Origin: Parolsenella catena
GTDB taxonomy: Bacteria; Actinomycetota; Coriobacteriia; Coriobacteriales; Atopobiaceae
Direction of reading: 5' to 3'
DNA: 64,000 nt
Assembly (NCBI RefSeq): GCF_003966955.1
Contig: NZ_AP019367.1
Coordinates: forward strand, 1,612,001-1,676,000
Numbering within the stretch: position 1 is the stretch's first letter; every line of letters begins with the position of its first letter. Made by a program: the position numbers and the translations under genes. The notes below the pieces were generated by a model that saw only the letters and a list, made by a program, of their open reading frames with translations, was not told where the DNA came from and did not search any database. This document shows positions 30,807 through 49,528 of the stretch, one piece after another.

Positions 30807-31026
30807 TTGAAATACGGGGAGTAAATAGCGAAATCGCAGGTGGAAGGGAGTAAAACGACAAAGAAAAAGCCTCCGTCCCAACGCGGGAACGGAGGCTCGG
30901 TTATCGTATTTACTCACCAACATCGCTGGTGGCTTTGCCGTGACTCTCGTACGAAACGAAACTCAGCGGCACAGTGCGGCACTCAAAAAAGCAGGTCAGA
31001 ACCCTATCGGCCTACTCCCACTCGAT
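30807..31026. repeat. Island boundary repeat, left copy (att-like)
   Basis: About 220 bp align with 50494-50714 at roughly 85 percent identity and in the same orientation. Both contain GGGGAGTAAA, AGGGAGTAAA, a terminator, TTTACTCACC, and end in CTACTCCCACTCGAT (here 31012-31026). That core is the last codons and stop of guaA. Sequences diverge immediately after it. This is the remnant of the guaA downstream region, left behind when the island entered. Confidence 0.82.
30862..30896 (-). terminator. Rho-independent terminator within the left repeat
   Basis: Read on the minus strand, AGCCTCCGT pairs with ACGGAGGCT and is followed by TTTTTC. In the island-free chromosome this would be the guaA terminator. 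Confidence 0.7.
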
Positions 31027-31481
31027 GGCGTCGGTTCTGCCGTCCCGTCACTCCAGTTACACCCAGTTTTCGGCATCGACACGGAACGCGTGCCGCCGAA
31101 TGACGCGATGTCGCGTTTCGTCGGCTTCGGGGACAAAAGCTGGGACAACCTCAAAAACTTTTTTCAAACTCAGGGCTTTGAGTTTTTGTTTTTGTCCCAA
31201 AGTGCGCGGCGGGTCGCCTTTGGAGGCTCGATGGCGCCGAAAACGCCCGTTTTGAAACTCAACCGCCCTTTTGCCCGCAAGCCGCCAGCTGCAATCGCAA
31301 GTGAATTAACGCGGGTGGCTTGCGCGCCATTTGCAAAACCCCAGGTCGCAGGTCTTCGCCATTCGTGAACAAAGTGAGTAGTCTCAGGTGGCTTGCTTAT
31401 GAGTTGGCGAACGGGCCTTCAGGATTCAGGGCAAACATGCTGGTAGAATAGGATTCTCAAATCAATGACAGGAGACCGAGC
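31027..31481. other. Left end of the island, no gene seen
   Basis: About 450 bp of non-coding DNA. It contains a long imperfect hairpin at 31142-31198 (GGGACA and CAAAAACT pairing with AGTTTTTG and TGTCCC). A TAGAAT box near 31444 may be the -10 of the abi gene. Confidence 0.5.
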
Positions 31482-32444
31482 ATGGCCGAACCCCACGATA
31501 GGAAGCCGATCCTCACGATCGAGCAGCAGATAGAGCACCTCAAGCAGAAGGGCGTAGCCTTCGAACTGTGTTCCGAGGAAGAGGCCGCGGACTACCTGCG
31601 CGACAAGTGCAACTTCTTCAAGCTCGCATCCTACCGCAAACTCTTCTCGAAATACGAGGGAGGCCCGCGCGACGGCCGCTACGTAGACCTCGACTTCGGC
31701 CAGCTGCGCCTGCTCGCGGCGCTCGACCAGGAGCTGCGCCACGCCCTGCTCGGCATGACGCTCGACATCGAGCATTTCCAGAAGGTGACACTGCTTCGCG
31801 AGATGGAGGACCGTGGAGAGGACGGCTACGCCATCGTGGCCGACTACATGGCATCGCTTACCACTGCAAACAGGGAGTACCGCCTGCGCGAGCTCAAGAT
31901 GAGCGGCCGCAGCCCCTACAGCTCGAGCCTCTACGCGAAGTACTCCGGCGACATGCCTGCCTGGGCCTTCCTTGAGCTCACCTCGTTCGGCACCCTCATC
32001 GACTTCGTGCGCTTCTGCGCCAGGCGATGGGGCGACAGGCGCCTCGAGGCCTCCCACTACGACCTCAAGCGCGTGAAGTCCGTCCGCAACTGCGCCGCGC
32101 ACGGCTCGTGCCTGATCAACTGCTTCGCCGAGAGGGGCGCCGCCCGGGGCTCGGCGTCCAGCGGCGTCTCCCGAAGGGTCGCCGCCGTGGGGATTCCCAA
32201 GGCGACCAGGAGGAAGTGGATGGGGAATACGGCCATGCAGGAGGTCGCGACCGTGCTCGTGGCGCACTCCGGCTTGGTACCCGAGGGCTCCTCGCGCTCG
32301 CGCGCCGCATCCGAGCTCGCCGAGATGTTCGCCAGGGCCGACGGCGAAACCGAGGCGCTGCCCGACAAGGGGCCCGACGCCGCAGCTCGCTCCGCGCTCG
32401 AGTTCCTTCGCAGGTTGACAGAATCGCTCGGGTTGGTAGAATAG
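31482..32444 (+). CDS. Abi_2 (AbiD/AbiF-type) HEPN abortive infection protein
   Basis: The protein has 320 aa; its ATG at 31482 follows AGGAGACCGAGC. The family opening KPILTIEQQIEHLKQKGVAF is followed by NFFKLASYRKLFSKYE and LDFGQLRLLAALDQELRHAL. The HEPN-type active site is SVRNCAAHGSCLIN, with Arg-x4-His. HEPN proteins of this kind are RNases that cleave RNA on phage infection. A strong promoter sits inside the last codons of the gene and drives the first of two small RNAs directly downstream (see those entries). AbiF-type genes are known to be accompanied by a conserved RNA motif, so protein and RNAs probably form one system. It is the first cargo gene of the island. Confidence 0.85.
   Translation: MAEPHDRKPILTIEQQIEHLKQKGVAFELCSEEEAADYLRDKCNFFKLASYRKLFSKYEGGPRDGRYVDLDFGQLRLLAALDQELRHALLGMTLDIEHFQKVTLLREMEDRGEDGYAIVADYMASLTTANREYRLRELKMSGRSPYSSSLYAKYSGDMPAWAFLELTSFGTLIDFVRFCARRWGDRRLEASHYDLKRVKSVRNCAAHGSCLINCFAERGAARGSASSGVSRRVAAVGIPKATRRKWMGNTAMQEVATVLVAHSGLVPEGSSRSRAASELAEMFARADGETEALPDKGPDAAARSALEFLRRLTESLGLVE
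32415..32442 (+). promoter_or_regulatory. Promoter of small RNA 1, inside the abi 3' end
   Basis: TTGACA (32415-32420), a 16-bp spacer and TAGAAT (32437-32442). It overlaps the abi stop codon (TAG 32442-32444). Five of six -10 bases and all -35 bases match consensus. Confidence 0.75.
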
Positions 32445-32448
32445 CCTG

Positions 32449-32510
32449 CAGATAGCAAAACCTTCACGGTTTTAGGGGCGGACTTGCGCAAGCGACTCTG
32501 CCCTATTTTT
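32449..32510 (+). ncRNA. Abi-associated small RNA, copy 1
   Basis: Predicted from promoter to T-run. A hairpin of AAAACC (32457-32462) and GGTTTT (32468-32473) is followed by GGGGCGG. Then comes a small palindrome CTTGCGCAAG and the terminator-like tail AGCGACTCTGCCCTATTTTT, whose TGCCCT can pair back with AGGGGC. Copy 2 has the same order of elements. Position after an AbiD/F gene matches the reported abiF-associated RNA motif; that identity is inferred, not tested. Confidence 0.65.
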
Positions 32511-32549
32511 ATATTCACTCGCTATAGGAGACGGATGATACCTGGGTCA

Positions 32550-32577
32550 ATGACAGAACTGAGAAGCCCGGAATAAT
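32550..32577 (+). promoter_or_regulatory. Promoter of small RNA 2
   Basis: ATGACA (32550-32555), again a 16-bp spacer, then AATAAT (32572-32577). Each hexamer has one mismatch. The geometry copies that of RNA 1, so the duplicated unit includes its promoter. Confidence 0.65.
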
Positions 32578-32583
32578 GGAGCC

Positions 32584-32643
32584 AGTTAGAAACCCTCGGG
32601 TTTGCGGGGCGGGATCATGAGAGCGATTCTGCCCTATTTTTTT
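32584..32643 (+). ncRNA. Abi-associated small RNA, copy 2
   Basis: Hairpin AAACCC (32590-32595) / GGGTTT (32598-32603), then GGGGCGG, a different short palindrome (TCATGA) and the tail AGCGATTCTGCCCTATTTTT, 19 of 20 identical to copy 1. The stem sequence differs from copy 1 while pairing is kept, that is compensatory change. A T7 run ends it. The divergent centre could be the part that gives each RNA its own partner or target. Confidence 0.65.
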
Positions 32644-32741
32644 CCTCCGTCTGCCCCAACCAAGTAGTTCGAAGATAGCCTGTAGGTGTCCTCGTGGGCG
32701 CCTTTTATAATATGAGCAGGACATTGTCAATAGGCAATGAA

Positions 32742-32773
32742 GGGCCAAGGGCGATTTCGTTCGCCCTTGGCCC
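32742..32773. terminator. Strong 13-bp perfect hairpin
   Basis: GGGCCAAGGGCGA and TCGCCCTTGGCCC with a 6-nt loop (TTTCGT). No clear T-run on either side. It separates the abi unit from the insertion sequences and may act as a bidirectional terminator. Confidence 0.55.
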
Positions 32774-33021
32774 AATCTATCTCCTCCGCAATCCCCGTTG
32801 ACAGCGCGTGTCGGATCGACGCCCGTCTGGCAGTTTAATATTCGCCCATCGCGCAGAATGCGCCGGTGCATCTCGTTGCTACGGCCGGCCCCTCCGTCTC
32901 GTCTGTCTTTTGGCGTGCGTGGCGGCTTCGCCGCCGCACGAAAAAAATCCGAGGATGGAGGCCGACGCCCGTCGAGCCCGGGAATTCCGGGAAAGACCCG
33001 GATATGTGCGCGGCGCTCCCG

Positions 33022-33861
33022 CTAGGCGCCTTCCGCCATTCGGCCCACGGCCCAGCACCAGCAGGCCAGCTCGCGCGCCACCGCGACGTTGGCCACGCTG
33101 CTCTGCTTGCCCGCATCGTCCATGGAGCGGCGCCTGTCGACGAGCCGCCTCACGCCCGCGTTGGCGTGTCGCCTGGTCGCTGCGTCGACTACCTGCCCCT
33201 TGGCCAGGTCTTTCGGCGACCTCGACGCTCCCTTGTAGTGCCAGGCGGCCTCGACGAGCAGCTTTCTCAGGTGCTTGTTGCCGGCCTTGGTTATCCCGCC
33301 GCGGAATCGGGACTCGCCGCTGGAGTGCTCGGAGGGCACCAGGCCCACCCACGCCGCGAAGCCCGACGCCGTGGCGAACCTCGCGAAGCCGTCGGCCTCG
33401 CACGCGATCGAAGCCGCGGTGACCGCGTCTATACCCTTGAGGCATTTGAGCGCGTCGCAGGTCGGCTTCCATCTAGGCTGCTGGGCCAGCGACTTGACCT
33501 TCGCCTCGAGCGCGGCCTTGGCGGCGTCGGCCTCGCGCACGCGCTCGCAGTAGTGGTCCAGCGTCGCCATGGCGGCGGCGTCCCCGAGGTCGATGCGGCC
33601 CACCCACGCCCAGAAATCCCCGGTCCAGCGGTTGCGCCTCTGGCCGGCGGCGTTCCTCTCGTCGTAGACGAGCCCGTGCCTGAGCAGGAACTTCGAAAGC
33701 CTCTGCTTGGCGCGCACGGCGTCGTCGCGCGCGTCGGCCAGCGCCCGCGCCAAATCCCGCGCGCCCTCGCACTCGGCATCGGGCACGTGCACCTCGGTGA
33801 CCACGCCCAGCGCCAGCTGCACCGCGAGGAACTGCGCGTCGCGCCTGTCGGTCTTGCGGGG
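33022..33861 (-). pseudogene. IS110-family transposase, 5' end lost
   Basis: The frame begins inside the family motif KTDRRDAQFLAVQL at about 33861 and runs to the stop at 33022. A coiled-coil middle and the Transposase_20 part follow: LKCLKGIDAVTAASI, FARFATASGFAAWVGLVPSE and FRGGITKAGNKHLRKLLVEA with its catalytic-serine region. The N-terminal RuvC-like DEDD domain is missing, exactly where the IS256 element begins. Downstream, a GC-rich hairpin (about 32914-32940, GTGCGTGGCGGC / GCCGCCGCAC) may be part of the old IS end. Confidence 0.82.
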
Positions 33862-35188
33862 TAACGTACAATCTCTTGCGCACTTTCACAGCAGCATAGC
33901 CTAGATACCAAAAGACACGGCTCCGGCCTTCGGTATGATTCGAGTTGTCTAGATTCGATCATATTAGGAGGCAGAGCCATGTCCGATCCCATCGTATCAT
34001 TCGACGAGGCCGCCATGCGCGGCGAGCTCAGGGAGCTCGTCAGAAGAACAGTCGAGGACACCCTGAACGCCCTTCTCGAGGAGGAGGCCGACGATCTGAT
34101 AGGCGCCGACCGCTACGAGCGGACGGCAGGGCGCGAGGCCTACCGCGCCGGACACTACGAGCGCGGGCTCACGACCACCTCGGGCCAGGTGACCCTCAGG
34201 ATGCCCAAGCTCAAGGGCATGAGGTTCGCGACGGCGATCATCGAGCGCTACAAGCGCCGTGAGACCTCCGTCGAGGAGGCCATGATCGAGATGTACCTGG
34301 CCGGGGTCTCCACCAGGAGGATCGAGGACGTCTCCGAGATCCTGTGGGGCGCGAGCGTGTCGGCATCGACGGTGTCGAACCTCAGCGACAAGGCGTTCGA
34401 GGCCGTCGAGGAGTGGAGGAGCAGGCCGCTGACCCGCAAGTACCCCTACGTCTTCGTCGACGGCATCTACCTCAAGAGAAGCTGGGGCGGCTCCTTCGAG
34501 AACGTGGCCGTGATGGTGGCCATCGGCGTCAACGACGACGGCTACCGAGAGGTGATCGGGGCCGCCGAGGGCTTCACCGAGTCGGCCGAGTGCTGGCGCG
34601 AGTTCCTCTCCTGGCTCAAGGGCCGGGGCCTCTCTGGCGTGCGCATGTTCACCGGCGACAAGGCCGCCGCCATGACGGGCGCGATAGCCGAGGTGTTCCC
34701 GGACGCCGCCTACCAGCGCTGCACGGTGCACTTCTACCGCAACGTGCTCTCGAAGGTCCCCAAGTCCAAGCGCGCCGAGGTGGCCGCGATGCTCAAGGCC
34801 GTCCATGCCCAGGAGTCTCTGGAGGCGAGCACGGAGAAGGCCGGCCGTGTCGCCGCCAAGCTGGAGGACATGAGGCTGGCGGCGGCCGCCAAGTGCGTCC
34901 GCGACGGCGTCGCGGAGACGCTGACCTACACGCGCTTCCCCGCGCGGCACTGGAGACGCATCCGCACCAACAATGCCATCGAGCGGCTGAACCGCGAGAT
35001 CCGCCGCCGAACGCGGGTCGTCGGCACCTTCCCGGACGGCAAGAGCGCGCTCATGCTGGCGACCGCGCGCCTGAAGTACGTGGCCGACAGCGAGTGGGGG
35101 TCGAGGAGGTATCTGGACGTGTCGCTGCTGGACGAGTGATCATGCCGACGGCTGGCGGTCGCCTGCTGGAATTTGCGCAAGATTATTG
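33862..35188 (+). mobile_element. IS256-family insertion sequence
   Basis: The element is defined by imperfect terminal inverted repeats. The left end GTACAATCTCTTGCGCA and the right end (reverse complement) share the block CTTGCGCA, then TTC and AGCAG. It carries one transposase. The exact ends are uncertain by a few bases. No target-site duplication is visible, because the left flank is IS110 and the right flank is different, so a deletion or recombination followed insertion. Confidence 0.75.
33979..35139 (+). CDS. IS256-family (mutator-type) transposase
   Basis: The protein has 386 aa; its ATG at 33979 follows TAGGAGGCAG. RNase H-fold DDE residues sit in YPYVFVDGIYLKRSWGG (first Asp), FTGDKAAAMTGAI (second Asp) and the C-terminal NNAIERLNREIRRRTRVVG (Glu). 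The CTVHFYRNVLSKVPKSKR motif is diagnostic of the mutator superfamily. The frame is intact, so the element may still be active. Confidence 0.95.
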   Translation: MSDPIVSFDEAAMRGELRELVRRTVEDTLNALLEEEADDLIGADRYERTAGREAYRAGHYERGLTTTSGQVTLRMPKLKGMRFATAIIERYKRRETSVEEAMIEMYLAGVSTRRIEDVSEILWGASVSASTVSNLSDKAFEAVEEWRSRPLTRKYPYVFVDGIYLKRSWGGSFENVAVMVAIGVNDDGYREVIGAAEGFTESAECWREFLSWLKGRGLSGVRMFTGDKAAAMTGAIAEVFPDAAYQRCTVHFYRNVLSKVPKSKRAEVAAMLKAVHAQESLEASTEKAGRVAAKLEDMRLAAAAKCVRDGVAETLTYTRFPARHWRRIRTNNAIERLNREIRRRTRVVGTFPDGKSALMLATARLKYVADSEWGSRRYLDVSLLDE

Positions 35189-35273
35189 ACAGTACCTTGT
35201 CTGCATTTTACTAAATACAAATTCAATGTATACAGAAAGATATAAGGAGTGGGAGGGATTCCGCCGTAGTTGG

Positions 35274-35313
35274 CATTGTAGGAAAATCCAAAAGTTTAGA
35301 TTTTCCCACAATG
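35274..35313. other. 15-bp stem-loop between the insertion sequence and small ORF
   Basis: CATTGTAGGAAAATC and GATTTTCCCACAATG pair with one mismatch around a 10-nt loop; the right arm is followed by CTTATCTTTTGG. It could be a terminator shielding the restriction operon from IS transcription. The rest of 35189-35422 is AT-rich and empty. Confidence 0.5.
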
Positions 35314-35422
35314 CTTATCTTTTGGTCTTTGGTTCGGAATAGTGTAGTGCTGGCGGTCTATCTCTTGTTTTCGGTTGCTTGCTTCCTTACCGTACATGAG
35401 CATTGAGAGAAGGAGACAAGCA

Positions 35423-35693
35423 GATGTTGGGTTACGAAGAAAAGATATAGCGCCTCGAACTGCTCGACGCGGTGGCAGATGCCGGGAGGCTGGCGAGGGG
35501 CCTGGACCAGCTGCTCGAGTCCCTGGCTCACGCCGACCAGCTGGACCCGCTCGACGTCGAGGGGGTCCTGGCCCTGAGGTCTATAAGCGAGAGGTGTGCC
35601 GAGCGCATCGGCGACGCGGCGCGCATCCTGGAGGCTCAGAACGAGGTCCTCTATGCGGAGGAGCGGGCCAAAGTCAAACCGCGCGATAACTGA
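35423..35693 (+). pseudogene. Small coiled-coil protein with an in-frame TAG at codon 9
   Basis: ATG at 35423 behind GAGAAGGAGACAAGCAG opens MLGYEEKI, then TAG, and the same frame goes on with RLELLDAVADAGRLARGLDQ through to ERAKVKPRDN. Without the stop it would be 89 aa, amphipathic and helical. A GTG at 35472 could restart a 73-aa form but has no good ribosome-binding site. Family not recognised. Probably an inactivated accessory gene of the island. Confidence 0.45.
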
Positions 35694-35870
35694 GGAACGA
35701 AACCCGGTCCGGAAACTGTTCCTTGATTCCGGCCGGATGATCTTCTCCGCCGCCCGGTGTCGCATTGTGTCCGAGCGGCTGATGTCCCCCTATTCCCAGT
35801 GCCGCGGCGTACCGCTGCGTTATAATTCAGAAAACGCATTTGTATTGCATTTCGAGGGATAGAGGCGCGA

Positions 35871-36083
35871 ATGTCTAACGGCTATAAGGAGCTCATCAAG
35901 GGTAACCCCGGCGAGACCGAGATCAGGAGCTTCCTGGTAAACGGCGACCAGGTATCTGTGACCCTGCGCATCCCCGACACCCTGCGCGACGCGGCGAAGG
36001 AGGAGGCTGCCCTTCGCGGCATGAGCTTCTCCGCCTTTGTGCGCACTTGCATGATCGAAGAGCTCGCGAAGAAGGGACAATAG
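35871..36083 (+). CDS. Ribbon-helix-helix (Arc/CopG-like) regulator
   Basis: The protein has 70 aa. The strand QVSVTLRIPD is followed by helices TLRDAAKEEAALRGMSFSAFVRTCMIEEL, the RHH dimer fold. A TATAAT box lies at 35821-35826, and a direct repeat GCATTT-N5-GCATTT just downstream could be its own operator. It is the first gene of the restriction operon (next start 3 bp after its stop) and probably its autorepressor. Confidence 0.75.
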   Translation: MSNGYKELIKGNPGETEIRSFLVNGDQVSVTLRIPDTLRDAAKEEAALRGMSFSAFVRTCMIEELAKKGQ

Positions 36084-36086
36084 CCC

Positions 36087-38213
36087 GTGACGGAGCCAAT
36101 GCACGACATCTCGGTCGAAGGCTTCATAGAGTCCTTCGACCGCCGATACCCGACTTTCATTCTCAAGACGTTGCTGTGCGACCGCACTACGGGGCGCAAC
36201 ATCATATGGGCCGACAACGAATACGAGGCCCTAGGCGACGGCTACATGGGCGATGACGAGATGACCGTCGAGAAGATCACGGGCATGAACTCCGGCGTCA
36301 TCAAGCCGCGCATCGCCAAAGAGCAGGAGAAGCAATCCCAGCGCACCAAGAGCCGCGCCGAGGTGTTCACCCCGTCATGGCTGTGCAATCAGATGAACAA
36401 CGACTTGGACGAGGCTTGGTTCGGCCGGCGCGATGTCTTCAACACCGAGATCGTTGCGGATGATGGCGCCAATACATGGACGCCGACTAGTGATCCAATC
36501 GAATTTCCAAAGTCAAAGGGACACGGCTGGCGCGCATACGTGGAGGCTACGCGGCTCGAGATCACGTGTGGCGAGGCGCCGTTTGTGTGCTCGCGCTACG
36601 ACACCGTGACGGGAGACGAGCTACCCGTAAGCGAGCGCGTAGGCTTCCTTGACCGCAAGCTTCGCGTTGTGACCGAGAAGACCAAGACTCGCAAGGAATG
36701 GGTGCGCCGGGCCCTCGACGCGCTGCGCGCGACGTACGGCTTCGAGTACCAGGGCGACAACCTGCTTATTGCTCGCGTCAATGTGCTCGAGACGTTCGTC
36801 GAGCATCTCCGCAATCGCTGGGGGTCGGGCCCCCAACAGGACGAGCTCGAGCAGGCGGCATGGATCGTTTCCTGGAACTTCTGGCAGATGAACGGCTTCA
36901 CAGACGCCGTGCCCACCAACAAGATGGGCGCCGAGGTGGAGTCGACCCTGGGGACGTTCGAGGAGCCCGAGCCGGAGCCGATGCAACCGTCGCTTTTCGA
37001 CCTGTTCGATGACGTATTCCCCGACGAGACAACCGAAGAGACCAAAGAAGAGGAGCCAAGGGAAACGGTTCCCCTCTGCGTGATATACGACTGGCAGAAC
37101 GGCGAGCCCTTCGAGTTCGCCGCATTGAAAGGTGAGGCAGCAATTATGGGAAAGAAGTTCTATGCGGTAATCGGTAATCCCCCATATCAGCTTTCAGTGG
37201 CGGAACAAGATTCTGGCAATAAGACCTATGCACCGCCCATCTATCACGAGTTTATGGACTCGGCGTTCAAGGTTTCCGACAAGGTGGAGCTTGTCACTCC
37301 CGCTAGATTCCTATTTGACGCCGGCTCAACCCCAAAGGCCTGGAACAGGAAGATGCTTAACGACCCCCATTTCAAAGTGATGAGCTATAAAGCGGATGCG
37401 TCCAGCGCCTTTCCGAATACCGACATCAAGGGCGGTGTTGCCGTTACCTATCGAGATGCTGATCGGGATTTCGGTGCGATAGAAGTGTTCACACATTTCG
37501 ATGAGCTTCGTACCATCAAAGAGAAGGTTGTAAAACATGGCATCCAACCCCTCGGCGATATCATCTTCGCGGCCGATAGCTACCACTTCACTGAAGCCAT
37601 GCACGAAGACCATCCCGAGATTCGTTATGTTGACGACGACCATGGTCTGTTGAGCAAGAACCACGACTATGACCTTAAGACAAACGTTCTCGACAACCTT
37701 AACAATGTAGTTTTCTTTGACGAGATGCCTGGCGACGGAGATAGTTGCATCAGAATCTTTGGCAGAGGTCGCGCCGGAAGAGCTTACAAGTTCATTTCCG
37801 CCAGATATATCGCTCCGCATCCGAACCTCGACAAATGGTAAGTACTTGTTCCTGCCGCCAACGGATCGGGCGCGCTTGGAGAAGTGCTTTCTACGCCCTT
37901 AATAGGGCGGCCCTTAATAGGGCATACGCAGTCCTTCATAAGCATTGGCAGTTTCAATTCCGAAGCGGAAGCTACGGCTCTCCTCAAATACATAAAATCG
38001 AAGTTCGCTCGGACCATGCTCGGAATTCTGAAGATTACGCAGCACAATCCCGCACCAAAATGGAAGTATGTCCCCCTACAGGACTTTACTTCTGACTCCG
38101 ACATCGATTGGTCGCAGTCTGTTGCTGACATCGACCGTCAGCTCTATGCGAAGTACGGCCTCGACGACGAGGAGATTCAGTTCATCGAATCCCATGTGAA
38201 GGAGATGGACTAG
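36087..38213 (+). pseudogene. Eco57I-type N6-adenine DNA methylase, interrupted by one TAA
   Basis: GTG at 36087 (MTEPMHDISVEGF). Family signatures are SRAEVFTPSWLCNQMNN, TRLEITCGEAPFVCSRYDTV, GFLDRKLRVV, YGFEYQGDNLLIARVNVL and the catalytic FYAVIGNPPYQ (NPPY 364-367). At 37839 a TAA interrupts PNLDKW-*-VLVPAANGSG; the same frame continues GHTQSFISIGSF to 38213. Read through, it would be 708 aa. The stop falls in a conserved K position (AAA/AAG to TAA), so one substitution explains it. The truncated product keeps the catalytic core but loses the last 124 residues of the recognition part. The 3' third is lower in GC. It pairs with the next gene's nuclease-helicase. Confidence 0.85.
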
Positions 38214-38215
38214 CA

Positions 38216-41200
38216 ATGGCGAGCATCGACATCTCCCAGATCATCGAGACCACCGCTCCCGCGGTGCCGCAGATCTATGCCTACACCACGCCCGAGATCG
38301 TCCGCCACAACGGCTGGACCAAGATCGGCTACACCGAGCAGGACGTGCGCGAGCGAATCAAACAGCAAACGCACACCGCCGACGTGCAGTGGCATCTGGA
38401 GTGGAGCGGCAACGCCACGTGGGAGCACCGTGCGGGCACGTTCCATGACACCGACTTCCACGCCTACCTCGAGAAGCAGGGCGTCGAGCGCGAACCCAAG
38501 AAGGAATGGTTCAAGATTAGCGGCGAGGAGTCTCACCAGCAGTTCTACCGGTTCCGCGACACCGACGGCGTGCTGGACGCACCCGGCGCTGCCTCCTACA
38601 CCCTGCGCGCCGAGCAGCAGCGCGCAGTGGAGCAGACGGGAGCCTTCGCCCGCGCCCATTGGGACGAGGGCGGCGCGCACGGCGGCGAGTTCCTGTGGAA
38701 CACCAAGCCGCGCTTCGGCAAGACGCTCACCGCATACGACCTGTGCCGCAGTATCGGCGCGCAGAAGGTGCTCATCGTCACCAACCGCCCTGCCATCGCC
38801 AACTCCTGGTACGACGACTACGTGAAGTTCGTGGGCTTGGAGGGCGGCTACCGCTTCATCAGCGGCGTGGACGCTCTGACCGGCAAGCCCTACTGCCTCA
38901 GCCGCGAGGAGTACCTGCGCGCCATCCGCAACGACCCGGAAGGCCCCAAGGGGTTCATCGAGTTCGTGAGCCTTCAGGACCTCAAGGGCTCCATCCGCTT
39001 CGGCGGCGTGTACCAGAAGCTCGACGAGGTGGCCGACCTCACCTGGGACGTGCTCATCATCGACGAGGCACACGAGGGCGTGGACACCTTCAAGACCGAC
39101 GTGGCATTCGACCACATCAAGCGCCGCTTCACGCTGCACCTCTCTGGCACGCCCTTCAAGGCCATCGCAAACGAGAAGTTCGCCGACGACGCCATCTACA
39201 ACTGGACCTATGCCGACGAGCAGCAGGCCAAGCGTGACTGGCCTGCCGACTCTGAGCAGCCGAACCCCTACGCCAACCTCCCCAAGCTCAACCTGCTCAC
39301 CTACCAGATGAGCGACATCGTCGAGCAGGAGGCCCGCGGCGGCATGGAGATTGATGGCGAGCAGACCGAGTTCGCCTTCGACCTCAACGAGTTCTTCTCG
39401 ACCAAGCACAACGGCGGCTTCGTGCACGACGCCGACGTGGATAAGTTCCTCGACGCGCTCACCACGCAGGAGAAGTTCCCGTTCTCGACACCCGGGCTGC
39501 GCGACGAGCTGCGTCACACGTTCTGGATGCTCAACCGCGTCGACTCCGCCCGCGCCCTCGCCAAGAAGCTGCAGGCGCACCCCGTCTTCAAGGATTACGA
39601 GGTGGTACTCGCTGCTGGCGACGGCAAGATCGACGCCGATGACGAGAACGAGAAATCGCTCGACAAGGTACGCCGCGCGATCAAGGACCACGACAGGACC
39701 ATCACCCTTTCGGTCGGCCAGCTGACCACGGGCGTGACCGTGCCGGAGTGGACCGCCGTGCTCATGCTCTCGAACATGGCGAGCCCCGCACTGTACATGC
39801 AGGCGGCCTTCCGCAGCCAGAACCCGTGCCTGTTCGACCTGGGCGGCGGCAACTACGCGCGCAAGGAGAACGCCTACGTCTTCGACTTCGACCCGGCGCG
39901 CACGCTTACTATCTTTGAGCAGTTCGCCAACGACCTGTACGGCGAGACCGCGCGCGGCGGCGGCGATGTCGAAACGCGCGAGCGCCATATCCGTCAGTTG
40001 CTGAACTTCTTCCCCGTCTACGGCGAGGACGAAGAGGGGCAGATGGTCGAGCTCGACGCCGAGCAGGTGCTCAGCGTGCCGAGGCGCATCCATGCCCGCG
40101 AGGTGGTCAGGCGCGGCTTTATGAGCAACTTCCTGTTCCAGAACATCGCGAGCGTCTTCCGCGCGCCGGCAGAGGTCGTGGAGATCATCCAGCGCTTCGA
40201 TCCCTACGAGCAGGGCAAGGCACAGAACGCCGAGAAGAACAAGGTCGAGATCGATGAGGGCACGGCCGACGAGCTCTCCATCAACGACGAGGGCGAGGTG
40301 GAGATTCCCGACGAGCAGGTCGTAGGCAAGGCTGCGGACATCTTCGGGCCGAAGGTCTACGGCGACATCGCCGTCGAATTCTCAGGCCACATGGACGACA
40401 TCGCGAAAGCCCACGAGGCCGATGACGACGATCGGGTGATGCTCGACAACCTCAAGGAGGCCTTCAAGCAGAGCGTGACCGCGCCTCTGGTACAGGCCGC
40501 CAAGGAGAGCTACGGCAGCGAGCTCAAGCCGCGCCAGCAGCAGCAGATCGAGCGCAAGGTCCAGGCGGACGCCGACATCCAACTCAACCGCCAGGTCGGC
40601 GACTACCAGATTCAGGCGCGCCGCATCGAGCAGTCGCGCAAGGACGAGCTCAAGGCGGCGACAAGCGAGACCGAGCGCGCCGAGGTGAACAAGCGCCATG
40701 ACGAGCAGAAAGCGGAGGCGTTCCAGACGCTCGCCCAGAAGCTCGAGGACTCCCGCGAGGAGCTCGTGCAACGCGCCGGCGAGACCGTGGTGCGCGAGGT
40801 GGAGACGGCGAAGAAAGAGGACGAGAAGCAGGGCATCGAGGACAAGGTGCGCGCTCATCTGCGCGGCTTCTCGCGTACCATCCCGTCGTTCCTCATGGCC
40901 TACGGCGAAGAGGGCACGACGCTCGCGAACTTCGACACCGTGATCCCCGCTGACGTCTTCCAGGACGTCACGAGCATCACCGTTGATGAGTTCCGCTTTT
41001 TGCGTGATGGCGGCGACTACACCGATGGCGAGACCGGCGAGGTAAAGCGCTTCGTTGGGCACCTCTTCGACGAGGTCGTATTCAACGACTCCGTGAGCGA
41101 GTTCATCAAGCTGCGCGAACGCCTGGCCAATTACTTCGACGAGTCCCAGACAGAGGACATCTTCGACTACGTGCCGCCCCAGAAGACCAATCAGATCTTC

Positions 41201-41599
41201 ACGCCGCGCAACGTCGTGGTTCAGATGGTGGACCTCTTCGAGAAGGAGAACCCGGGCTGCTTCGATGACCCGAGCCACACCTTCGCCGACCTGTATATGA
41301 AGTCTGGCCTCTACATCACCGAGATCATCAAGCGCCTGTACCGAAGCGAGGGCATGAAGGCCGCCTTCCCGGACGACCGCGAGCGTTTGGACCACATCCT
41401 GGAGCATCAGGTGTTCGGCATCGCGCCCACCAAGATTATCTACGAGATTGCCACCCACTTCATCCTGGGTTTCCACGACGAGGTCGGCCAAGGATGTGAC
41501 TCTAACTTCGAGCTCGCGGACGCCGCGGAGCTCGCCAAGGAGGGCACGCTGGAGGCATACGTCGAGCGCGTCTTCGGGCCCAAGCTGGGCGAGGCGTAG
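38216..41599 (+). CDS. GIY-YIG nuclease - superfamily 2 helicase restriction protein
   Basis: A protein of 1127 aa starting 2 bp after the methylase stop. The N-terminus is a GIY-YIG/T5orf172-like nuclease (VPQIYAYT at 18-24, WTKIGYTEQDVRERI at 34-48). The SF2 motor follows: Walker A PRFGKT (165-170), DEAH (283-286), LSGTPFKA and a helicase C part with TTGVTVPEW and QAAFRSQNP. A long charged coiled coil (about 770-880) leads to a C-terminal domain with KTNQIFTPRNVVVQMVDLFE and FADLYMKSGLYI, resembling a methylase recognition half without NPPY. It should translocate on and cut unmethylated DNA. If the methylase is really inactive, this gene would be toxic unless silenced. Confidence 0.85.
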   Translation: MASIDISQIIETTAPAVPQIYAYTTPEIVRHNGWTKIGYTEQDVRERIKQQTHTADVQWHLEWSGNATWEHRAGTFHDTDFHAYLEKQGVEREPKKEWFKISGEESHQQFYRFRDTDGVLDAPGAASYTLRAEQQRAVEQTGAFARAHWDEGGAHGGEFLWNTKPRFGKTLTAYDLCRSIGAQKVLIVTNRPAIANSWYDDYVKFVGLEGGYRFISGVDALTGKPYCLSREEYLRAIRNDPEGPKGFIEFVSLQDLKGSIRFGGVYQKLDEVADLTWDVLIIDEAHEGVDTFKTDVAFDHIKRRFTLHLSGTPFKAIANEKFADDAIYNWTYADEQQAKRDWPADSEQPNPYANLPKLNLLTYQMSDIVEQEARGGMEIDGEQTEFAFDLNEFFSTKHNGGFVHDADVDKFLDALTTQEKFPFSTPGLRDELRHTFWMLNRVDSARALAKKLQAHPVFKDYEVVLAAGDGKIDADDENEKSLDKVRRAIKDHDRTITLSVGQLTTGVTVPEWTAVLMLSNMASPALYMQAAFRSQNPCLFDLGGGNYARKENAYVFDFDPARTLTIFEQFANDLYGETARGGGDVETRERHIRQLLNFFPVYGEDEEGQMVELDAEQVLSVPRRIHAREVVRRGFMSNFLFQNIASVFRAPAEVVEIIQRFDPYEQGKAQNAEKNKVEIDEGTADELSINDEGEVEIPDEQVVGKAADIFGPKVYGDIAVEFSGHMDDIAKAHEADDDDRVMLDNLKEAFKQSVTAPLVQAAKESYGSELKPRQQQQIERKVQADADIQLNRQVGDYQIQARRIEQSRKDELKAATSETERAEVNKRHDEQKAEAFQTLAQKLEDSREELVQRAGETVVREVETAKKEDEKQGIEDKVRAHLRGFSRTIPSFLMAYGEEGTTLANFDTVIPADVFQDVTSITVDEFRFLRDGGDYTDGETGEVKRFVGHLFDEVVFNDSVSEFIKLRERLANYFDESQTEDIFDYVPPQKTNQIFTPRNVVVQMVDLFEKENPGCFDDPSHTFADLYMKSGLYITEIIKRLYRSEGMKAAFPDDRERLDHILEHQVFGIAPTKIIYEIATHFILGFHDEVGQGCDSNFELADAAELAKEGTLEAYVERVFGPKLGEA

Positions 41600-41602
41600 C
41601 GC

Positions 41603-42916
41603 GTGGCGGAAGTAGTCGACAGCAAACAGGATGGGCGTGCAGAGGCTGCGCGAGCGGCGGTGAGTGCGGCACGGCGTGAGGATACCGAACTTTGCGCCCG
41701 TCTAGTCTTTCGCGTCTCGCGCAATGAGCTAAGGCGCGTGGGGATCACCACGCCCATCGCTCTCTACGATGAGCTGAAGCAGGTCTTCTGGAACGCAGAC
41801 GAGGGCGTCACCCTGGGCGACCACCTCTCTGTCGGGTTCGGCAAGGTCGACCGCCGCCGTCAGGTGCGCGCCTTCGCCGAGCGCCATGCGGACGAGCCCA
41901 GAAACGTCGCCGCGAAAGCCTACGAGCGCGAATACGGCTTCAGCGCAGGCATCGCCGCGATATGGCTCGACCTGTTCGCCGAGCCCGCGGACGTGAGCTT
42001 CTCGGAGTGGCTTGGCGTCGAGGTCGCTGAATGCCCGACGGGCGCCCCGGCCTCCCGTGCGGATGTGCCCGTAGCGCACGACACCGAGCGCGAGGCACCC
42101 ACCCTCGAGGGCTTCCTTGCCCGGGAGCTTGCCGGCCGCATCTGCGACGAAGGCCTCGTGCGTCGGCGCTTCGCCTTCGAGTTTCCCGACGATCCGCCCG
42201 AAGCGCTCGACCGCGGCATCGAGGATGCGGGCTACTACGAGGACCGCGGCTTGCTCTTCCGAGAAGGGAGCACCCCGAACGACCACTTCACGCGGCTGCT
42301 GGCCGAGCATCCGTCTTTCGCGAAGGGCGACGCCGGCTTCGAGAACGCCGTGTGGCAGCACCCCGCCTTCCGCCAGGTGCTGCGCCAGGCGCTTTCGGAC
42401 CACCGCTTACTTCTCTACGAGGGCGACAGCTACATCTCGTTCTCGCGGCTGCACGACGTGCTAGGCGCGCGCATGGCGGACATCGAGTCGTACGCGCCCG
42501 CGGTGAGCGTGGATGCGCCCGAAGGCGAGCCCTTCACCGTGGCGAGCCTGCGCGCGGGCGGCGCCACTCCGCATCCGCTGTACGGGCTGGACATGCCCGA
42601 CGACTTCTACGAGGGACTGCTCGACGCGGGAGGGCTCCTGCGCAGCTGCACGCTCGCCGGAACCAAGGTGTTCGTCGCCGGAGGCGAGGGGCGGCTTTCC
42701 GCAGCCGACCTCATCGAGTGGATCGTCGCCCACCATGAGGGAATCGAGCGCGATGACCTGCCGAGACTGCTCGCGAACGATCTGGGCATCACGTGCCCGG
42801 CACCGCTTCTGACGACGACCATTTACAACTCCGACGTCTACTACGACGACATCGGGGACGCATATTACTCATCCATGGAGGCATGGAAGAAGGAGGCACG
42901 AAATGAGCTTGCTTGA
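41603..42916 (+). CDS. Unknown 437-aa protein of the composite restriction operon
   Basis: GTG at 41603, 3 bp after the helicase stop; its end overlaps the next gene by 14 bp, so it is part of the operon. Acidic and mostly helical. The region RVSRNELRRVGITTPIALYD may be a DNA-contacting helix-turn-helix. A repeated type of block (FRQVLRQALSDHRLLLYEGD, DLIEWIVAHHEGIERDDLPR) resembles winged-helix modules. The C-terminus (YYDDIGDAYYSSMEAWKKE) is Tyr-rich. No catalytic motif or known family. Likely a sensor or adaptor between the nuclease-helicase and the ParB-SNF2 pair. Confidence 0.7.
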   Translation: MAEVVDSKQDGRAEAARAAVSAARREDTELCARLVFRVSRNELRRVGITTPIALYDELKQVFWNADEGVTLGDHLSVGFGKVDRRRQVRAFAERHADEPRNVAAKAYEREYGFSAGIAAIWLDLFAEPADVSFSEWLGVEVAECPTGAPASRADVPVAHDTEREAPTLEGFLARELAGRICDEGLVRRRFAFEFPDDPPEALDRGIEDAGYYEDRGLLFREGSTPNDHFTRLLAEHPSFAKGDAGFENAVWQHPAFRQVLRQALSDHRLLLYEGDSYISFSRLHDVLGARMADIESYAPAVSVDAPEGEPFTVASLRAGGATPHPLYGLDMPDDFYEGLLDAGGLLRSCTLAGTKVFVAGGEGRLSAADLIEWIVAHHEGIERDDLPRLLANDLGITCPAPLLTTTIYNSDVYYDDIGDAYYSSMEAWKKEARNELA

Positions 42917-44114
42917 GGAAGGGATCGCGACTGGCAACGTCCTGCCGACGGGTCGCAAGGAGAAGCACTCCATCGACAACGTGACGCGCGACTTCGACAT
43001 CTACCGCATCAAGTGCGATCTGCTGTTCTACAACGACCAGAACGACCGCATCGCCACTTGGGTAAGCGAGTACAACTCCGCGCAGGGCGCGGATCTGCTC
43101 GCCCTTGGCCGCGACGAGTACAACGGCGTCATCGAGGACTTCATCGTCGAGAGCAACCCCGGCGCGCTCAGGAAGACCGAGAAGAGCATCGCCCTTCGCG
43201 GCCAGCTTAGGCCGGGCATCGTGCTCAACGACGGACGCGTCATCGACGGCAACCGACGCCTGACCTGCGTCCGCCGCCTCGCGCGGGCGAACAACGAGGC
43301 GGGCTGGTTCGAGGCCGCCATCCTCGACGACGCCACAGGCAGCGACCCCAAGCGCATCAAGCTGCTCGAGCTCGCCATCCAAATCGGCGAAGAGGAGAAG
43401 GTGGCGTACGATCCCGTCGACCGCCTCGTCGGCGTATACCGCGACGTGGTTAAGAACCACCTCATAACCCCTGCGGAGTACGGCAACGCGACGGGCATGA
43501 CCGAGGCGGAGGTGAAAAAACTCGTCGACCGCGCCCAGTACATGGAGGAGTTCCTCGAATTCTGCCAGGCCCCCGAGCAGTACCACCTCGCCCGCGCCCT
43601 CAAGGTCGATGGCCCCTTGGGCGAGTTCAGCCGCGTGCTGAAGAAGTACGACAACAGGCGCGACAAACAGCTTGTCAAACGACTCATGTTCGCCAACATG
43701 GTGGTGCAGCCCGAGGGCGACATCACCCGATACGTGAGAGACTTCGGCAGCGTGGCAGGCACGGATGCGGAGGCCGACTTCAAGGCCGCCGAGCTGCAGG
43801 CCATGTCCGAGCTCCTCGAGAAGATGGGTCCCGACGCCCTCACGCGCGAGAAGGTGAGCGAGCTGCGCTCGGACGGCAACCTCGTCGACGGCTTCAAGCG
43901 CGCAGGCGACCGCGCAAGAGAGACCGTGCGCCGCGTCAAGCTCATGGACACGCCCGCCAAGAAATCCGCCGACTGCCTCTCCGAGCTCGAGAAGATCCTT
44001 CCCGAGATGCTCGACGTGCTGGGACCCGACGAGCTCGAGAAGGTGCGCCGCAACCTCGTTGCCGTCGCCGACAAGGTGGAAGAGCTGATCGGTGAGATCG
44101 ATGAGCGCGCCTAG
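42903..44114 (+). CDS. ParB/Srx-fold protein
   Basis: The protein has 403 aa; its ATG at 42903 overlaps the previous gene. The ParB nucleotide-binding signature is clear: QLRPGIVLNDGRVIDGNRRL (101-120), preceded by an IVESNPGALRKTEKSI loop. A helix-turn-helix-like part (ITPAEYGNATGMTEAEVKKLVDRA without the long run quoted further) and a long C-terminal coiled coil follow. Outside chromosome segregation, ParB-fold proteins serve as CTP switches, nucleases or DNA-modification readers. Here it is translationally coupled to a helicase (ATGA-type overlap of 14 bp), so a role as DNA-loading or sensing clamp for the helicase is plausible. Confidence 0.78.
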   Translation: MSLLEEGIATGNVLPTGRKEKHSIDNVTRDFDIYRIKCDLLFYNDQNDRIATWVSEYNSAQGADLLALGRDEYNGVIEDFIVESNPGALRKTEKSIALRGQLRPGIVLNDGRVIDGNRRLTCVRRLARANNEAGWFEAAILDDATGSDPKRIKLLELAIQIGEEEKVAYDPVDRLVGVYRDVVKNHLITPAEYGNATGMTEAEVKKLVDRAQYMEEFLEFCQAPEQYHLARALKVDGPLGEFSRVLKKYDNRRDKQLVKRLMFANMVVQPEGDITRYVRDFGSVAGTDAEADFKAAELQAMSELLEKMGPDALTREKVSELRSDGNLVDGFKRAGDRARETVRRVKLMDTPAKKSADCLSELEKILPEMLDVLGPDELEKVRRNLVAVADKVEELIGEIDERA

Positions 44115-46044
44115 GGCCGTCGTCTGCTACGACGAGGCGCGCCCCGGCATGTACCTGCGCATCGAGGGGCAAGACATCGCCTCGTTCATGGCCTCGGCCG
44201 CATGGCGCGCCTGGCTGTACTACCCGGCGAGCGCCGTCGACGGCACCGATCGCGACCGCATCCTACTCGACGGCGGCATGGGCCTTCGCGAGTGCCAGGA
44301 CATGCTCGAGGCGATCATGGAGGCCGACGGCCACGGCGTCGAGGTCGCGGTTGACCCGAGCTTCGGCGCCTTCGTGAACGCCGGCGAGACCTACATCCGC
44401 GAGCGCTCCGAGGTGGGGTTGGCCATCAAGGCGCAGACCGCCGAGGGCATCGCCGACGACCCCCAGCTGGGGCCGCGCTTCCGGGAGTTCCGCGACGTAG
44501 TGAACGCCTCGATGGTGCGTCCCCTGCGCGACCGGCAGATGCTCGACGCCTTCTTCATGGCGACGGTTGGGCGCGCGGCCGACTTCTCGGTGCCCGGCGC
44601 CGGCAAGACCGCGACGGTGCTCGGCGTGTTCGCCTACCTTCGCCATTTGGGGCTCGCGCGCCGCATCGTGGTGGTTTGCCCCAAGAACGGCTTCGAGTCG
44701 TGGGAGAAGGAGTGGGTCGCCACCTTCGGGGATAAGCTGCCTTTGAGCTGCTTCTCGCTGGGAGACCCCGCCATAGCGGCGATGTCGACCGAGCGCAGGC
44801 GCAACGCGCTGTCGCTCGACAGCGGCGCGTGCAACCTGTTCACGTTCAACTACGAGTCGCTCTCGGGCTACGTGCGGGAGCTGCATGCCATCATCCCCGA
44901 CCAGACCCTGCTCGTCTTCGACGAGGTGCACCGGGTGAAGGCCATCGGCGGCAGGCGCGCGGAAGCCGCGCTCGAGGCGGCCGACGGCGCGAAGTTCGTG
45001 ATCGCCCTTACGGGAACGCCCATCCCGAACACCTACCAGGACATCTACAACCTGCTGCACATCCTGTACCCCGAGGACTACGACACGTTCTTCGGCTACG
45101 AGCCGGGCGAGCTCCGCGCGCCCGATGCGGACCTCCAGGCAAGCCTCAACGACAGCCTGGCGCCCTTCTTCTGCCGAACGAACAAGGACGAGCTCGGCGT
45201 GCCGCGCCCGGAGCCCGACGAGATCGTGGAGGTCGAGGCGACGCCCGATGAGGACACATTGCTGCGAGTCCTGTACGCGTCTTGCCCCAACGCGCTCGCG
45301 AGGATCATACGCACCCTGCAGCTCGAGAGCGACCCCGAGATGCTCTGCTCTGCAGTGGACCCAGGCGACCTCGAGTACGTGCTCGACCAGGTCGGCGATG
45401 ACTACTCGGATATCGACTACGTCGACTTCTCGCAGACGTTCTACGAGGCCATCGAGCGAAGCCGCCCGAGCTCGAAGCTCGTGGCGTGCGAGCGGCTCGT
45501 GGAGCGCATCGTCGCCGAAGGCCGCCCCGTCATAGTATGGTGCATCTTCGTACGCAGCATCAGCAACCTCCGCCGCGACCTCGCCGCCATGGGGATTCCG
45601 GCAGAGGCGATCTACGGCGCCACGCCACAGGAAGAGAGACGCGAGATTCTGGACGACTTCCGCGCGGGGCGCTTCAGGGTGCTCGTGACCAACCCGCAGA
45701 CGCTTGCCGAGTCGGTCTCTCTGCACAGCGTCTGCCACGACGCGGTGTATTTCGAGTACAGCTACAACTTGGTGCACCTGCTGCAGTCAAAGGACCGCAT
45801 ACACCGTCTGGGCCTGCCCGACGACCAGAAGACGCGCTACTACTTCATGCGCGAGAAGTTCATGCGCGACGGCAGGGAGCTATCCCTCGACGCCGTGATC
45901 TACGACCGCTTGAAGGAGAAGGAGCAGACGATGCTCGACGCCATCGACCGCGGCTGCCTTGAGGGCGGCTACCTCGATGACGAGGACCTGCGTATCGTCT
46001 TCGAGCGCCTGCTGGGAGAAGATGCCAAGAGCCTGGAATACTAA
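44101..46044 (+). CDS. SNF2-like DEAD/DEAH-box helicase
   Basis: The protein has 647 aa from the ATG at 44101. After a 140-residue own N-terminal domain comes the motor: PGAGKT (165-170), VVVCPKNGFESWEKEW (Ia), FDEVHRVK (DEVH 274-277), ALTGTPIPN (III), and the C-terminal lobe with VIVWCIFVRSISNLRRDLA, TNPQTLAESVSLH and QSKDRIHRLG (motif VI, SNF2 form). It resembles the SNF2 ATPases of phage-defence systems such as DISARM DrmD and Zorya ZorD, but the neighbours of those systems are absent. Last gene of the tight operon. Confidence 0.85.
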   Translation: MSAPRAVVCYDEARPGMYLRIEGQDIASFMASAAWRAWLYYPASAVDGTDRDRILLDGGMGLRECQDMLEAIMEADGHGVEVAVDPSFGAFVNAGETYIRERSEVGLAIKAQTAEGIADDPQLGPRFREFRDVVNASMVRPLRDRQMLDAFFMATVGRAADFSVPGAGKTATVLGVFAYLRHLGLARRIVVVCPKNGFESWEKEWVATFGDKLPLSCFSLGDPAIAAMSTERRRNALSLDSGACNLFTFNYESLSGYVRELHAIIPDQTLLVFDEVHRVKAIGGRRAEAALEAADGAKFVIALTGTPIPNTYQDIYNLLHILYPEDYDTFFGYEPGELRAPDADLQASLNDSLAPFFCRTNKDELGVPRPEPDEIVEVEATPDEDTLLRVLYASCPNALARIIRTLQLESDPEMLCSAVDPGDLEYVLDQVGDDYSDIDYVDFSQTFYEAIERSRPSSKLVACERLVERIVAEGRPVIVWCIFVRSISNLRRDLAAMGIPAEAIYGATPQEERREILDDFRAGRFRVLVTNPQTLAESVSLHSVCHDAVYFEYSYNLVHLLQSKDRIHRLGLPDDQKTRYYFMREKFMRDGRELSLDAVIYDRLKEKEQTMLDAIDRGCLEGGYLDDEDLRIVFERLLGEDAKSLEY

Positions 46045-46114
46045 GAGGCCGAACGGCGCACTGACGATATTGGCTCATAAGTAACAACTGCGAAGGAAAG
46101 ATAGGGCTTTAAGG

Positions 46115-47818: not shown

Positions 47819-47821
47819 ACC

Positions 47822-48247
47822 TTACATGCGCCCCATCTCGAAGATGCTTGCGGTGTCGGAGCCCGCATCCATGACGGATGTTGTCGGCTCTTCCAAATGC
47901 GAGGTTTGCGGTGGCGCTTCCGTCACTGGTGCCTCAACCCCCTCGCCGAGCGCCAGGAAGAACCTCATCACGAGCTCGATCCTCTGCTGCAGGGACTCGC
48001 TCAGCTCGCCGTAGGAGGCCGCCAGCCGTACTTCCTTGGACAACTCCGCCATCGAGTCCTTCAACGCCTTCTGCACGCTTACAGAGGGCCTCACCTCGAC
48101 CTGGGTATCGGTGAGCTTGGCGATGATGTAGTCCTGCCTGCTCATGCCGCTCCAGGCTGCCATCTCGCATATGAGCTTGTGCTCCTCGGGCGTGCAGCGA
48201 AACGCCATCGTCTTGCTGCGCTTGCGGGCGCTGTTCTCGCACGGCAT
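47822..48247 (-). CDS. MobC-like / RHH DNA-binding protein of the island
   Basis: The protein has 141 aa from the ATG at 48247 (MPCENSARKRSKTMAFRCT) with GAGGGGG upstream. The segment MAFRCTPEEHKLICEMAAWS GMSRQDYIIAKL type pattern is that of relaxosome accessory proteins (MobC) and RHH proteins in integrative elements. The rest is a coiled coil and an acidic tail. No relaxase is in the island, so mobilisation in trans or a role in replication or excision control is possible. It is convergent with the GmrSD gene, with only a 3-bp gap, and is downstream of the integrase. Confidence 0.62.
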   Translation of the reverse strand: MPCENSARKRSKTMAFRCTPEEHKLICEMAAWSGMSRQDYIIAKLTDTQVEVRPSVSVQKALKDSMAELSKEVRLAASYGELSESLQQRIELVMRFFLALGEGVEAPVTEAPPQTSHLEEPTTSVMDAGSDTASIFEMGRM

Positions 48248-48252
48248 CTTGC

Positions 48253-49323: not shown

Positions 49324-49324
49324 G

Positions 49325-49528
49325 TCAGTCCACCTCCGGGAAGTACAGGGCGTCGAAGACGTCGCTCCGGACGCGTCCGCGGATAACCACGCGCCCGCGC
49401 GCCTCCTGCTCGGCGTTTATCTTCCTGATCACCTCGTAGGCGCTGCCTTTCTTGATCCTCAGCAGCTCCGCGACCTCGTCGGCGTCCAGCATGTGCGGCC
49501 TCGGCGTCTTCGCCACCTTCTCGTCCAT
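49325..49528 (-). CDS. xis: Excisionase-like helix-turn-helix protein
   Basis: The protein has 67 aa from the ATG at 49528 with a perfect GGAGGAG, which decides against the ORF's earlier ATG. HMLDADEVAELLRIKKGSAY is a MerR/Xis-like winged-helix start. Its stop is one base before the integrase start, so both are co-transcribed. It probably directs excision and may repress int. Confidence 0.8.
   Translation of the reverse strand: MDEKVAKTPRPHMLDADEVAELLRIKKGSAYEVIRKINAEQEARGRVVIRGRVRSDVFDALYFPEVD

What the first reader, a model, noticed from the sequence alone, without database searches (positions are those of the whole stretch)
32415..32643. Abi_2 HEPN gene followed by two tandem, promoter-driven structured RNAs
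Seen: two units, each with a -35, a 16-bp spacer and a -10, then a 5-6 bp hairpin, GGGGCGG, a short unit-specific palindrome, and a 19/20 identical tail ending in CTGCCCTATTTTT. Stems differ in sequence but keep pairing. The first promoter is inside the last codons of the abi gene. Known: AbiD/F proteins are HEPN RNases, and an RNA motif has been reported next to abiF genes, with AbiF linked to RNA antitoxin function and Cas13 origin. Inference: the RNAs bind and hold the Abi protein, and the divergent centres of the two copies may have different partners. Two copies under separate promoters may allow dosage or specificity control.
Basis: partly seen in the sequence, partly recalled or inferred. 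Interest (0 to 1): 0.85.

Follow-up and report, generated by a model that had tools for sequence, protein, structure and literature searches.

The report
HEPN toxin with downstream RNA antitoxin genes
A predicted RNA-cutting phage-defence toxin gene is followed by two small RNA genes of a conserved, previously unclassified RNA family that most likely hold the toxin in check, and the second RNA looks like a leftover antitoxin from a different, related toxin.

Summary
After the Abi_2 (HEPN) gene at 31482-32444(+) lie two promoter-hairpin-terminator units, 32415-32510 and 32550-32641. In the 1.8 Mb genome only these two match the covariance model I built from homologues (47.8 and 45.3 bits; next 22). 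The RNA is a conserved family: 57 of 62 full-length divergent homologues in Coriobacteriia carry it just downstream, with a TTGACA -35 box 40-43 nt before hairpin 1, usually inside the last abi codons. 17 of 19 pairs show compensatory changes. It is not the Rfam abiF RNA (RF03085), which has another structure and lies upstream of a different Abi_2 clade. The protein is related to PbAbiF (8VZ6), solved bound to its ncRNA, and keeps the HEPN RNxxxH motif. Best explanation: a type III-like toxin-antitoxin module whose RNA is encoded downstream from its own promoter. New points: unit 2 is not the toxin's cognate RNA but that of another Abi (46% identical) whose gene is absent here; about 40% of listed family members stand alone; the S. 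aureus sRNA Sau-5971 has the same placement behind an Abi_2 gene. Expression, binding and toxicity are untested. The module ends a 19.7-kb guaA-integrated defence island.

The parts
31482..32444 (+). abi gene, 320-aa Abi_2/AbiD-type HEPN protein; R202-N203...H207 is the HEPN RNxxxH motif
   Evidence: PF07751 68 bits, PADLOC AbiD 79 bits; R202, N203 and H207 invariant in 39 homologues; AlphaFold2 pLDDT 94.9; only significant PDB match is 8vz6 PbAbiF
32415..32442 (+). promoter of RNA 1: -35 TTGACA 32415-32420, spacer 16, -10 TAGAAT 32437-32442, inside the last abi codons
   Evidence: sequence; conserved position 40-43 nt before hairpin 1 in 39 of 49 homologous loci
32449..32510 (+). RNA 1 (cognate): 5' leader CAGATAGC, hairpin 1 32457-32473, terminator hairpin 2 32475-32504, T-run to 32510
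   Evidence: fold; covariance model R2 47.8 bits; covariation
32550..32577 (+). promoter of RNA 2: -35 ATGACA 32550-32555, spacer 16, -10 AATAAT 32572-32577
   Evidence: sequence
32584..32641 (+). RNA 2 (non-cognate type): hairpin 1 32590-32603, terminator hairpin 2 32606-32635, T-run
   Evidence: R2 45.3 bits; 96% identical to the sole RNA of a different Abi gene in L045-L047
31012..32708 (+). block shared mostly at 98-100% identity across Collinsella, Slackia, Olsenella, Senegalimassilia and Thermophilibacter: island end, leader, abi, RNA 1, RNA 2

Best explanation
This is a toxin-antitoxin-like defence module. The HEPN protein (predicted homodimeric RNase) is the toxin. A separate small RNA of about 60 nt, transcribed from its own sigma-70 promoter that starts in the toxin's last codons, is the antitoxin; it binds the protein and keeps the RNase inactive until infection or another stress upsets the balance. 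Unit 1 is the cognate RNA. Unit 2 is the RNA of another Abi allele that once occupied this cassette and stayed when the abi gene plus RNA 1 replaced that allele. Shown here by computation: protein family and motif, conserved covarying RNA family, fixed promoter geometry, linkage in 57 of 62 homologues, and foreign type of unit 2. Inferred from AbiF precedent: expression, binding, neutralisation, RNase toxicity and phage trigger.
For: HEPN residues R202/N203/H207 invariant in 39 homologues. Profile match to PbAbiF 8vz6, E 1.6e-8, and the only significant structural match in the PDB, TM 0.60. RNA downstream in 57 of 62 full-length divergent homologues, 55 by model and 2 by structure only. Covariation: 95% of cells paired, 17 of 19 pairs with changes on both sides, 0/500 shuffles, collapse when slid. 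Promoter: 29 of 49 loci have perfect TTGACA in the expected 24-nt window (shuffled 0.5%) and 39 of 49 at least 5/6 (8.6%), 33 of those 39 inside or overlapping the abi gene. RNA and protein divergence correlate, Spearman 0.45, 0/1000 permutations. Same layout behind Abi_2 genes of a faecal phage and an Evtepia-type phage (33.5 and 28.6 bits). In S. aureus the sRNA Sau-5971 starts 11 nt after an Abi_2 stop codon and is highly expressed (PMC3386247). AbiFCd is toxic and is neutralised in trans by a bound RNA in C. difficile (PMC12373285).
Against: No transcript, binding or toxicity data for this system. The model's seed was chosen for good pairing, so pairing percentages lean upward. Co-divergence is also expected from linked inheritance alone. 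The characterised C. difficile AbiF system places the RNA upstream and co-transcribes it, so the same mechanism is not guaranteed. Sau-5971 is not matched by the model, so it is an analogy. Five full-length homologues have no recognisable downstream unit.
Confidence: 0.78

Rival explanations
1. The RNA is an activator or cofactor (guide-like RNA) that directs the HEPN RNase to phage RNA, in the Cas13 manner, rather than an antitoxin.
For: AbiF proteins are proposed ancestors of Cas13 (PMC12737573; PMC12373285). A fixed separate promoter and a compact conserved scaffold would suit a cofactor RNA.
Against: No variable guide segment: nearly every position is in a conserved stem, loop or linker. 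The two AbiF systems reported as characterised in the papers read use the RNA as antitoxin (PMC12373285, PMC12737573).
Confidence: 0.08
2. The units are only transcription terminators or 3' UTR hairpins of the abi mRNA; any small RNA is a by-product.
For: Unit ends are good intrinsic terminators; Sau-5971 has been described as processed from a large 3' UTR (PMC3386247).
Against: A terminator needs neither hairpin 1, a conserved CAGAT leader, a GTAA linker nor a promoter at fixed distance. Solo copies keep the promoter without the gene. Only two places in the genome match.
Confidence: 0.08
3. Unit 2 is a simple local duplication of unit 1 that gives extra antitoxin dose.
For: Same plan and a 19/20 identical tail; one tandem locus (L061) really is a near-identical duplication (98%).
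Against: Unit 2 is 77% identical to unit 1 but 96% identical to the RNA of L045-L047, whose Abi is 46% identical. The 3' flank matches L047 at 94% and the leader at 88%. In 3 other tandem loci unit 2 is also closest to the RNA of a different Abi.
Confidence: 0.12

Closest known systems
AbiF with abiF RNA (Rfam RF03085); RCd22-AbiFCd of C. difficile (PMC12373285); PbAbiF-AbiFr, PDB 8VZ6
   Same: Abi_2 HEPN protein with RNxxxH motif and a small structured RNA partner; same fold as PbAbiF.
   Different: RNA lies downstream with its own promoter, not upstream and co-transcribed as RCd22 is. Two hairpins of which the second is the terminator, instead of the bulged hairpin CCCGCC-A-AGC..GCU-CAAAUC-GGCGGG. 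Protein belongs to a lower-scoring Abi_2 clade (68-82 bits against 166-190 for RF03085-linked genes).
Classical type III toxin-antitoxin systems (ToxIN, AbiQ, TenpIN, CptIN)
   Same: Proposed logic: RNase toxin held by direct binding of a small RNA.
   Different: Unrelated toxin family; antitoxin is not an upstream tandem-repeat array (definition as in PMC12373285).
Staphylococcus sRNA Sau-5971/RsaL (RF02397)
   Same: Highly expressed sRNA directly behind an Abi_2 gene, TTGACT in the last codons (PMC3386247).
   Different: Different sequence and three hairpins; not matched by the model R2.
AbiD/AbiD1 of Lactococcus
   Same: PADLOC AbiD profile matches the protein.
   Different: I know of no RNA partner described for AbiD; not tested here.

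Membership tests
Rfam abiF RNA (RF03085) | covariance-model match at or above 37 bits | tested here: not met
   no match even at E<=10 in 32300-32800, none in 20 homologous loci or the whole genome; positive control phiC2 scores 37.6
Rfam abiF RNA (RF03085) | RNA upstream of the abi gene | tested here: not met
   units are downstream here and in 57 of 62 homologues; RF03085 hits in the class that can be placed lie upstream of other Abi_2 genes (G065, G013)
Abi_2/AbiD-F HEPN proteins | PF07751 above cut-off and HEPN motif | tested here: met
   68.1 bits against cut-off 25.6; R202/N203/H207 invariant
Abi_2/AbiD-F HEPN proteins | fold of a solved AbiF | tested here: met
   8vz6_A E 6e-4, probability 1.00, TM 0.60/0.64
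type III toxin-antitoxin system | RNA antitoxin binds the protein toxin directly | not testable with these tools
   needs pull-down or co-expression
type III toxin-antitoxin system | upstream repeat array separated from the toxin by a terminator | tested here: not met
RNA family described here (model R2) | two-hairpin RNA with compensatory changes next to Abi_2 | tested here: met
AbiF ncRNA models of Zilberzwige-Tal et al. (AbiFr) | match to their covariance models | not tested

The most novel reading that the evidence does not exclude
Downstream RNA antitoxins of AbiD-type toxins behave as independent, portable immunity genes. Cassettes that swap their toxin keep the old antitoxin (unit 2 here), and many chromosomes keep solo antitoxin RNAs. 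These RNAs protect against, and perhaps disarm, related toxins carried by incoming islands: an RNA-level anti-addiction system.
Probability: 0.3. Interest if true: 0.82.

Novelty: new variant of a known kind. Interest (0 to 1): 0.66.

Why it matters
AbiF and its RNA are the proposed ancestors of CRISPR-Cas13. A second Abi_2 clade with a different, downstream-encoded RNA shows that the RNA partner is not fixed in structure or position. It gives a large natural series (about 150 listed RNAs) for working out which RNA fits which toxin. Solo and non-cognate RNAs make antitoxin specificity and cross-neutralisation directly testable. The layout also suggests a function for Sau-5971/RsaL, a highly expressed S. 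aureus small RNA whose role I did not find described.

Tried and rejected
Rfam abiF membership: rejected. Chance terminators: rejected by whole-genome specificity and conserved promoter. First covariance model R1 missed hairpin 1 because MAFFT misaligned it and was not used. Alignment A2 held one mistyped flank and was discarded for A3. The first promoter scan looked in the wrong window; its promoter part is superseded. IS110 bridge RNA as the identity of the units: considered because a truncated IS110-like transposase lies at 33022-33822, dropped because most homologous loci have the units and no IS110 directly behind them. Plasmid carriage of the block: no match. The first structure job failed and was repeated.

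Full report
OBSERVATION. The abi gene is 31482-32444. Promoter 1 is TTGACA-16-TAGAAT (32415-32442) and overlaps the stop codon; promoter 2 is ATGACA-16-AATAAT (32550-32577). Each is followed by a 5-6 bp hairpin, GGGGCGG, and a GC hairpin running into ATTTTT. Unit 1 folds far better than shuffles (z -4.0), unit 2 only modestly (z -1.5).

PROTEIN. It matches Pfam Abi_2 (68 bits) and PADLOC AbiD (79 bits). In an alignment of 39 homologues R202, N203 and H207 are invariant, the RNxxxH HEPN motif; C. difficile AbiF has R202/H207, needed for toxicity (PMC12373285). A profile of the family finds one PDB chain, 8vz6 PbAbiF, E 1.6e-8. The AlphaFold2 model (pLDDT 94.9) finds the same chain as its only significant structural match (TM 0.60).

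RNA FAMILY. I took the flanks of Abi_2 homologues from 298 Coriobacteriia genomes. Almost all have the same unit right after the stop codon: leader CAGAT, hairpin AAAACC-UUCG-GGUUUU, linker GUAA/GCA, terminator hairpin, AGUUUUU. A model built from 18 of them (R2) matches 55 of 62 full-length divergent loci downstream, with two more by structure. Two of the five without a unit are one near-identical pair (L092, L093). On 64 distinct matches, 95.2% of cells pair, 17 of 19 pairs have changes on both sides, 0 of 500 shuffles reach any measure, and sliding the partner by one base drops pairing to about 60%. Caveat: the seed was picked by a pairing-based finder and A4 is fitted to the model, so the percentage leans upward; the double-sided changes against the shuffles and slides are the stronger evidence. 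In its own genome the model hits only these two units. In a sample of the whole phylum strong hits stay within the same order, so as modelled the family is mainly from Coriobacteriales. A phage from human faeces and an Evtepia-type phage carry clear members behind their Abi_2 genes (33.5 and 28.6 bits), and a Campylobacter plasmid has the same two-hairpin layout without a significant score.

PROMOTER. With the distance fixed from hairpin 1, 29 of 49 loci have a perfect TTGACA and 39 of 49 at least five matches (shuffled windows 0.5% and 8.6%). All 39 lie 40-43 nt before hairpin 1; 30 are within the abi gene and 3 overlap its end. This places the start about 7 nt before hairpin 1 and predicts an RNA of about 60 nt. 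No transcription data were available.

NOT RFAM abiF. RF03085 is a bulged hairpin (phiC2 control). It matches neither these units nor 20 homologous loci nor this genome. In Coriobacteriia it is rare (4 of 199 genomes over the cut-off) and, where positions can be compared (G065, G013), lies upstream of Abi_2 genes scoring about 190 bits, against 68-82 bits for the genes with downstream RNAs examined. C. difficile AbiF scores 166. Two Abi_2 clades thus seem to pair with two RNA types in opposite positions. I could not test the AbiF models of Zilberzwige-Tal et al. (mentioned in PMC12804078), so I cannot exclude that their broader model includes this RNA.

UNIT 2 IS FOREIGN. The nearest relative of unit 2 is the single RNA of L045-L047 (96%), whose Abi is 46% identical to the window's; unit 2 is only 77% identical to unit 1. 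L047 shares the leader (88%), the N-terminal part of the gene (about 76% as DNA together with the leader) and the 3' flank to 32708 (94%), but the C-terminal third of the protein is about 16% identical. The simplest history is that the 3' part of abi with RNA 1 replaced the resident one and left the resident RNA behind. In 4 of 5 independent tandem loci the second unit is closest to the RNA of a different Abi; the fifth (L061) is a true duplication. Among 16 near-identical window-type loci, 13 have both units and 3 have one, and the unit-1 body is always the one kept. The genome has no L045-type Abi; it has one other Abi_2 gene of the other clade, at 489 kb, outside the window.

SOLO RNAs. Of 150 listed RNA matches in the class, 90 lie within 700 nt downstream of an Abi homologue on the same strand and 60 do not. 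I inspected 47 of the latter. Five have a recognisable abi remnant within 500 nt; 37 keep a -35 box with at least five matches at 38-43 nt; 40 keep the T-run. These were found by RNA score, so intact structure is partly ascertainment, but the promoter is not part of the model. Whether they are selected or merely young remnants is open.

S. AUREUS. Behind the Abi_2 gene in L180 (PF07751 82 bits) Rfam places sau-5971 (117 bits) starting 11 nt after the stop codon. It has been reported as highly expressed, next to SA0355 and rpsR, and described as processed from a 3' UTR (PMC3386247); the gene order in L180 agrees. It is not matched by R2, so this is an analogy that gives expression evidence for the layout, not a family member.

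CONTEXT. The 17-nt repeat CTACTCCCACTCGAT(G/C)G at 31012 and 50700, the latter the 3' end of guaA (50700-52556, minus), bounds a 19.7-kb island with a tyrosine integrase (48253-49323), a methylase/helicase pair, an SNF2 helicase and a GmrSD protein. Movement with guaA-targeting islands would explain why the 1.7-kb block is nearly identical across several genera of Coriobacteriia. In homologues the block continues into an azaaromatic riboswitch and a yjdF-like gene.

MECHANISM. Shown: family, motif, RNA structure, promoter, linkage and foreign type of unit 2. Inferred: RNA 1 is made constitutively, binds the HEPN dimer and blocks its RNase; loss of RNA supply during phage attack frees the toxin. 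RNA and protein divergence correlate (Spearman 0.45, 0/1000), mostly with the HEPN part (partial 0.39) rather than the C-terminal part (0.08), although linked descent alone could give a correlation.

Noticed in passing
window 31012-50716: 19.7-kb genomic island integrated at the 3' end of guaA, flanked by CTACTCCCACTCGAT(G/C)G repeats, with a tyrosine integrase, Eco57I-type methylase, ResIII and SNF2 helicases, a GmrSD protein and two genes without Pfam match (41603-42916, 42903-44114).
   Followed up: partly
L180:1136-2216: The known S. aureus small RNA Sau-5971/RsaL starts 11 nt behind an Abi_2 gene, suggesting an antitoxin role.
   Followed up: partly
L035, L045, L019, L098 and window 32709: IS110-like elements beginning AATATGAG...CATTGTCAA sit directly after the T-run of the RNA terminator, or after another T-rich stretch at 32708 in the window; they seem to target terminators.
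   Followed up: no
window 33022-35139: Truncated IS110-like transposase (minus strand), interrupted by a Mutator-family (IS256-type) element whose transposase is at 33979-35139.
   Followed up: partly
L119:556-1565: A solo RNA of the family lies just downstream of an ORF resembling an AbiEii toxin (by eye, not searched); solo RNAs in L146, L158 and L168 share the same immediate upstream sequence.
   Followed up: no
L172 and L008:4227-5000: Homologous blocks continue into an azaaromatic riboswitch and a yjdF-like gene, and in L172 join head to tail with the next copy at the att-like sequence.
   Followed up: partly
L183, L186, L187, L188, L190: Abi_2 genes on Bacillota plasmids are also followed by hairpin RNAs of other types (for example GAAAGAATGGTTCGACCATTCGC), often with TTGAC near the gene end; not matched by R2 or Rfam.
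   Followed up: no
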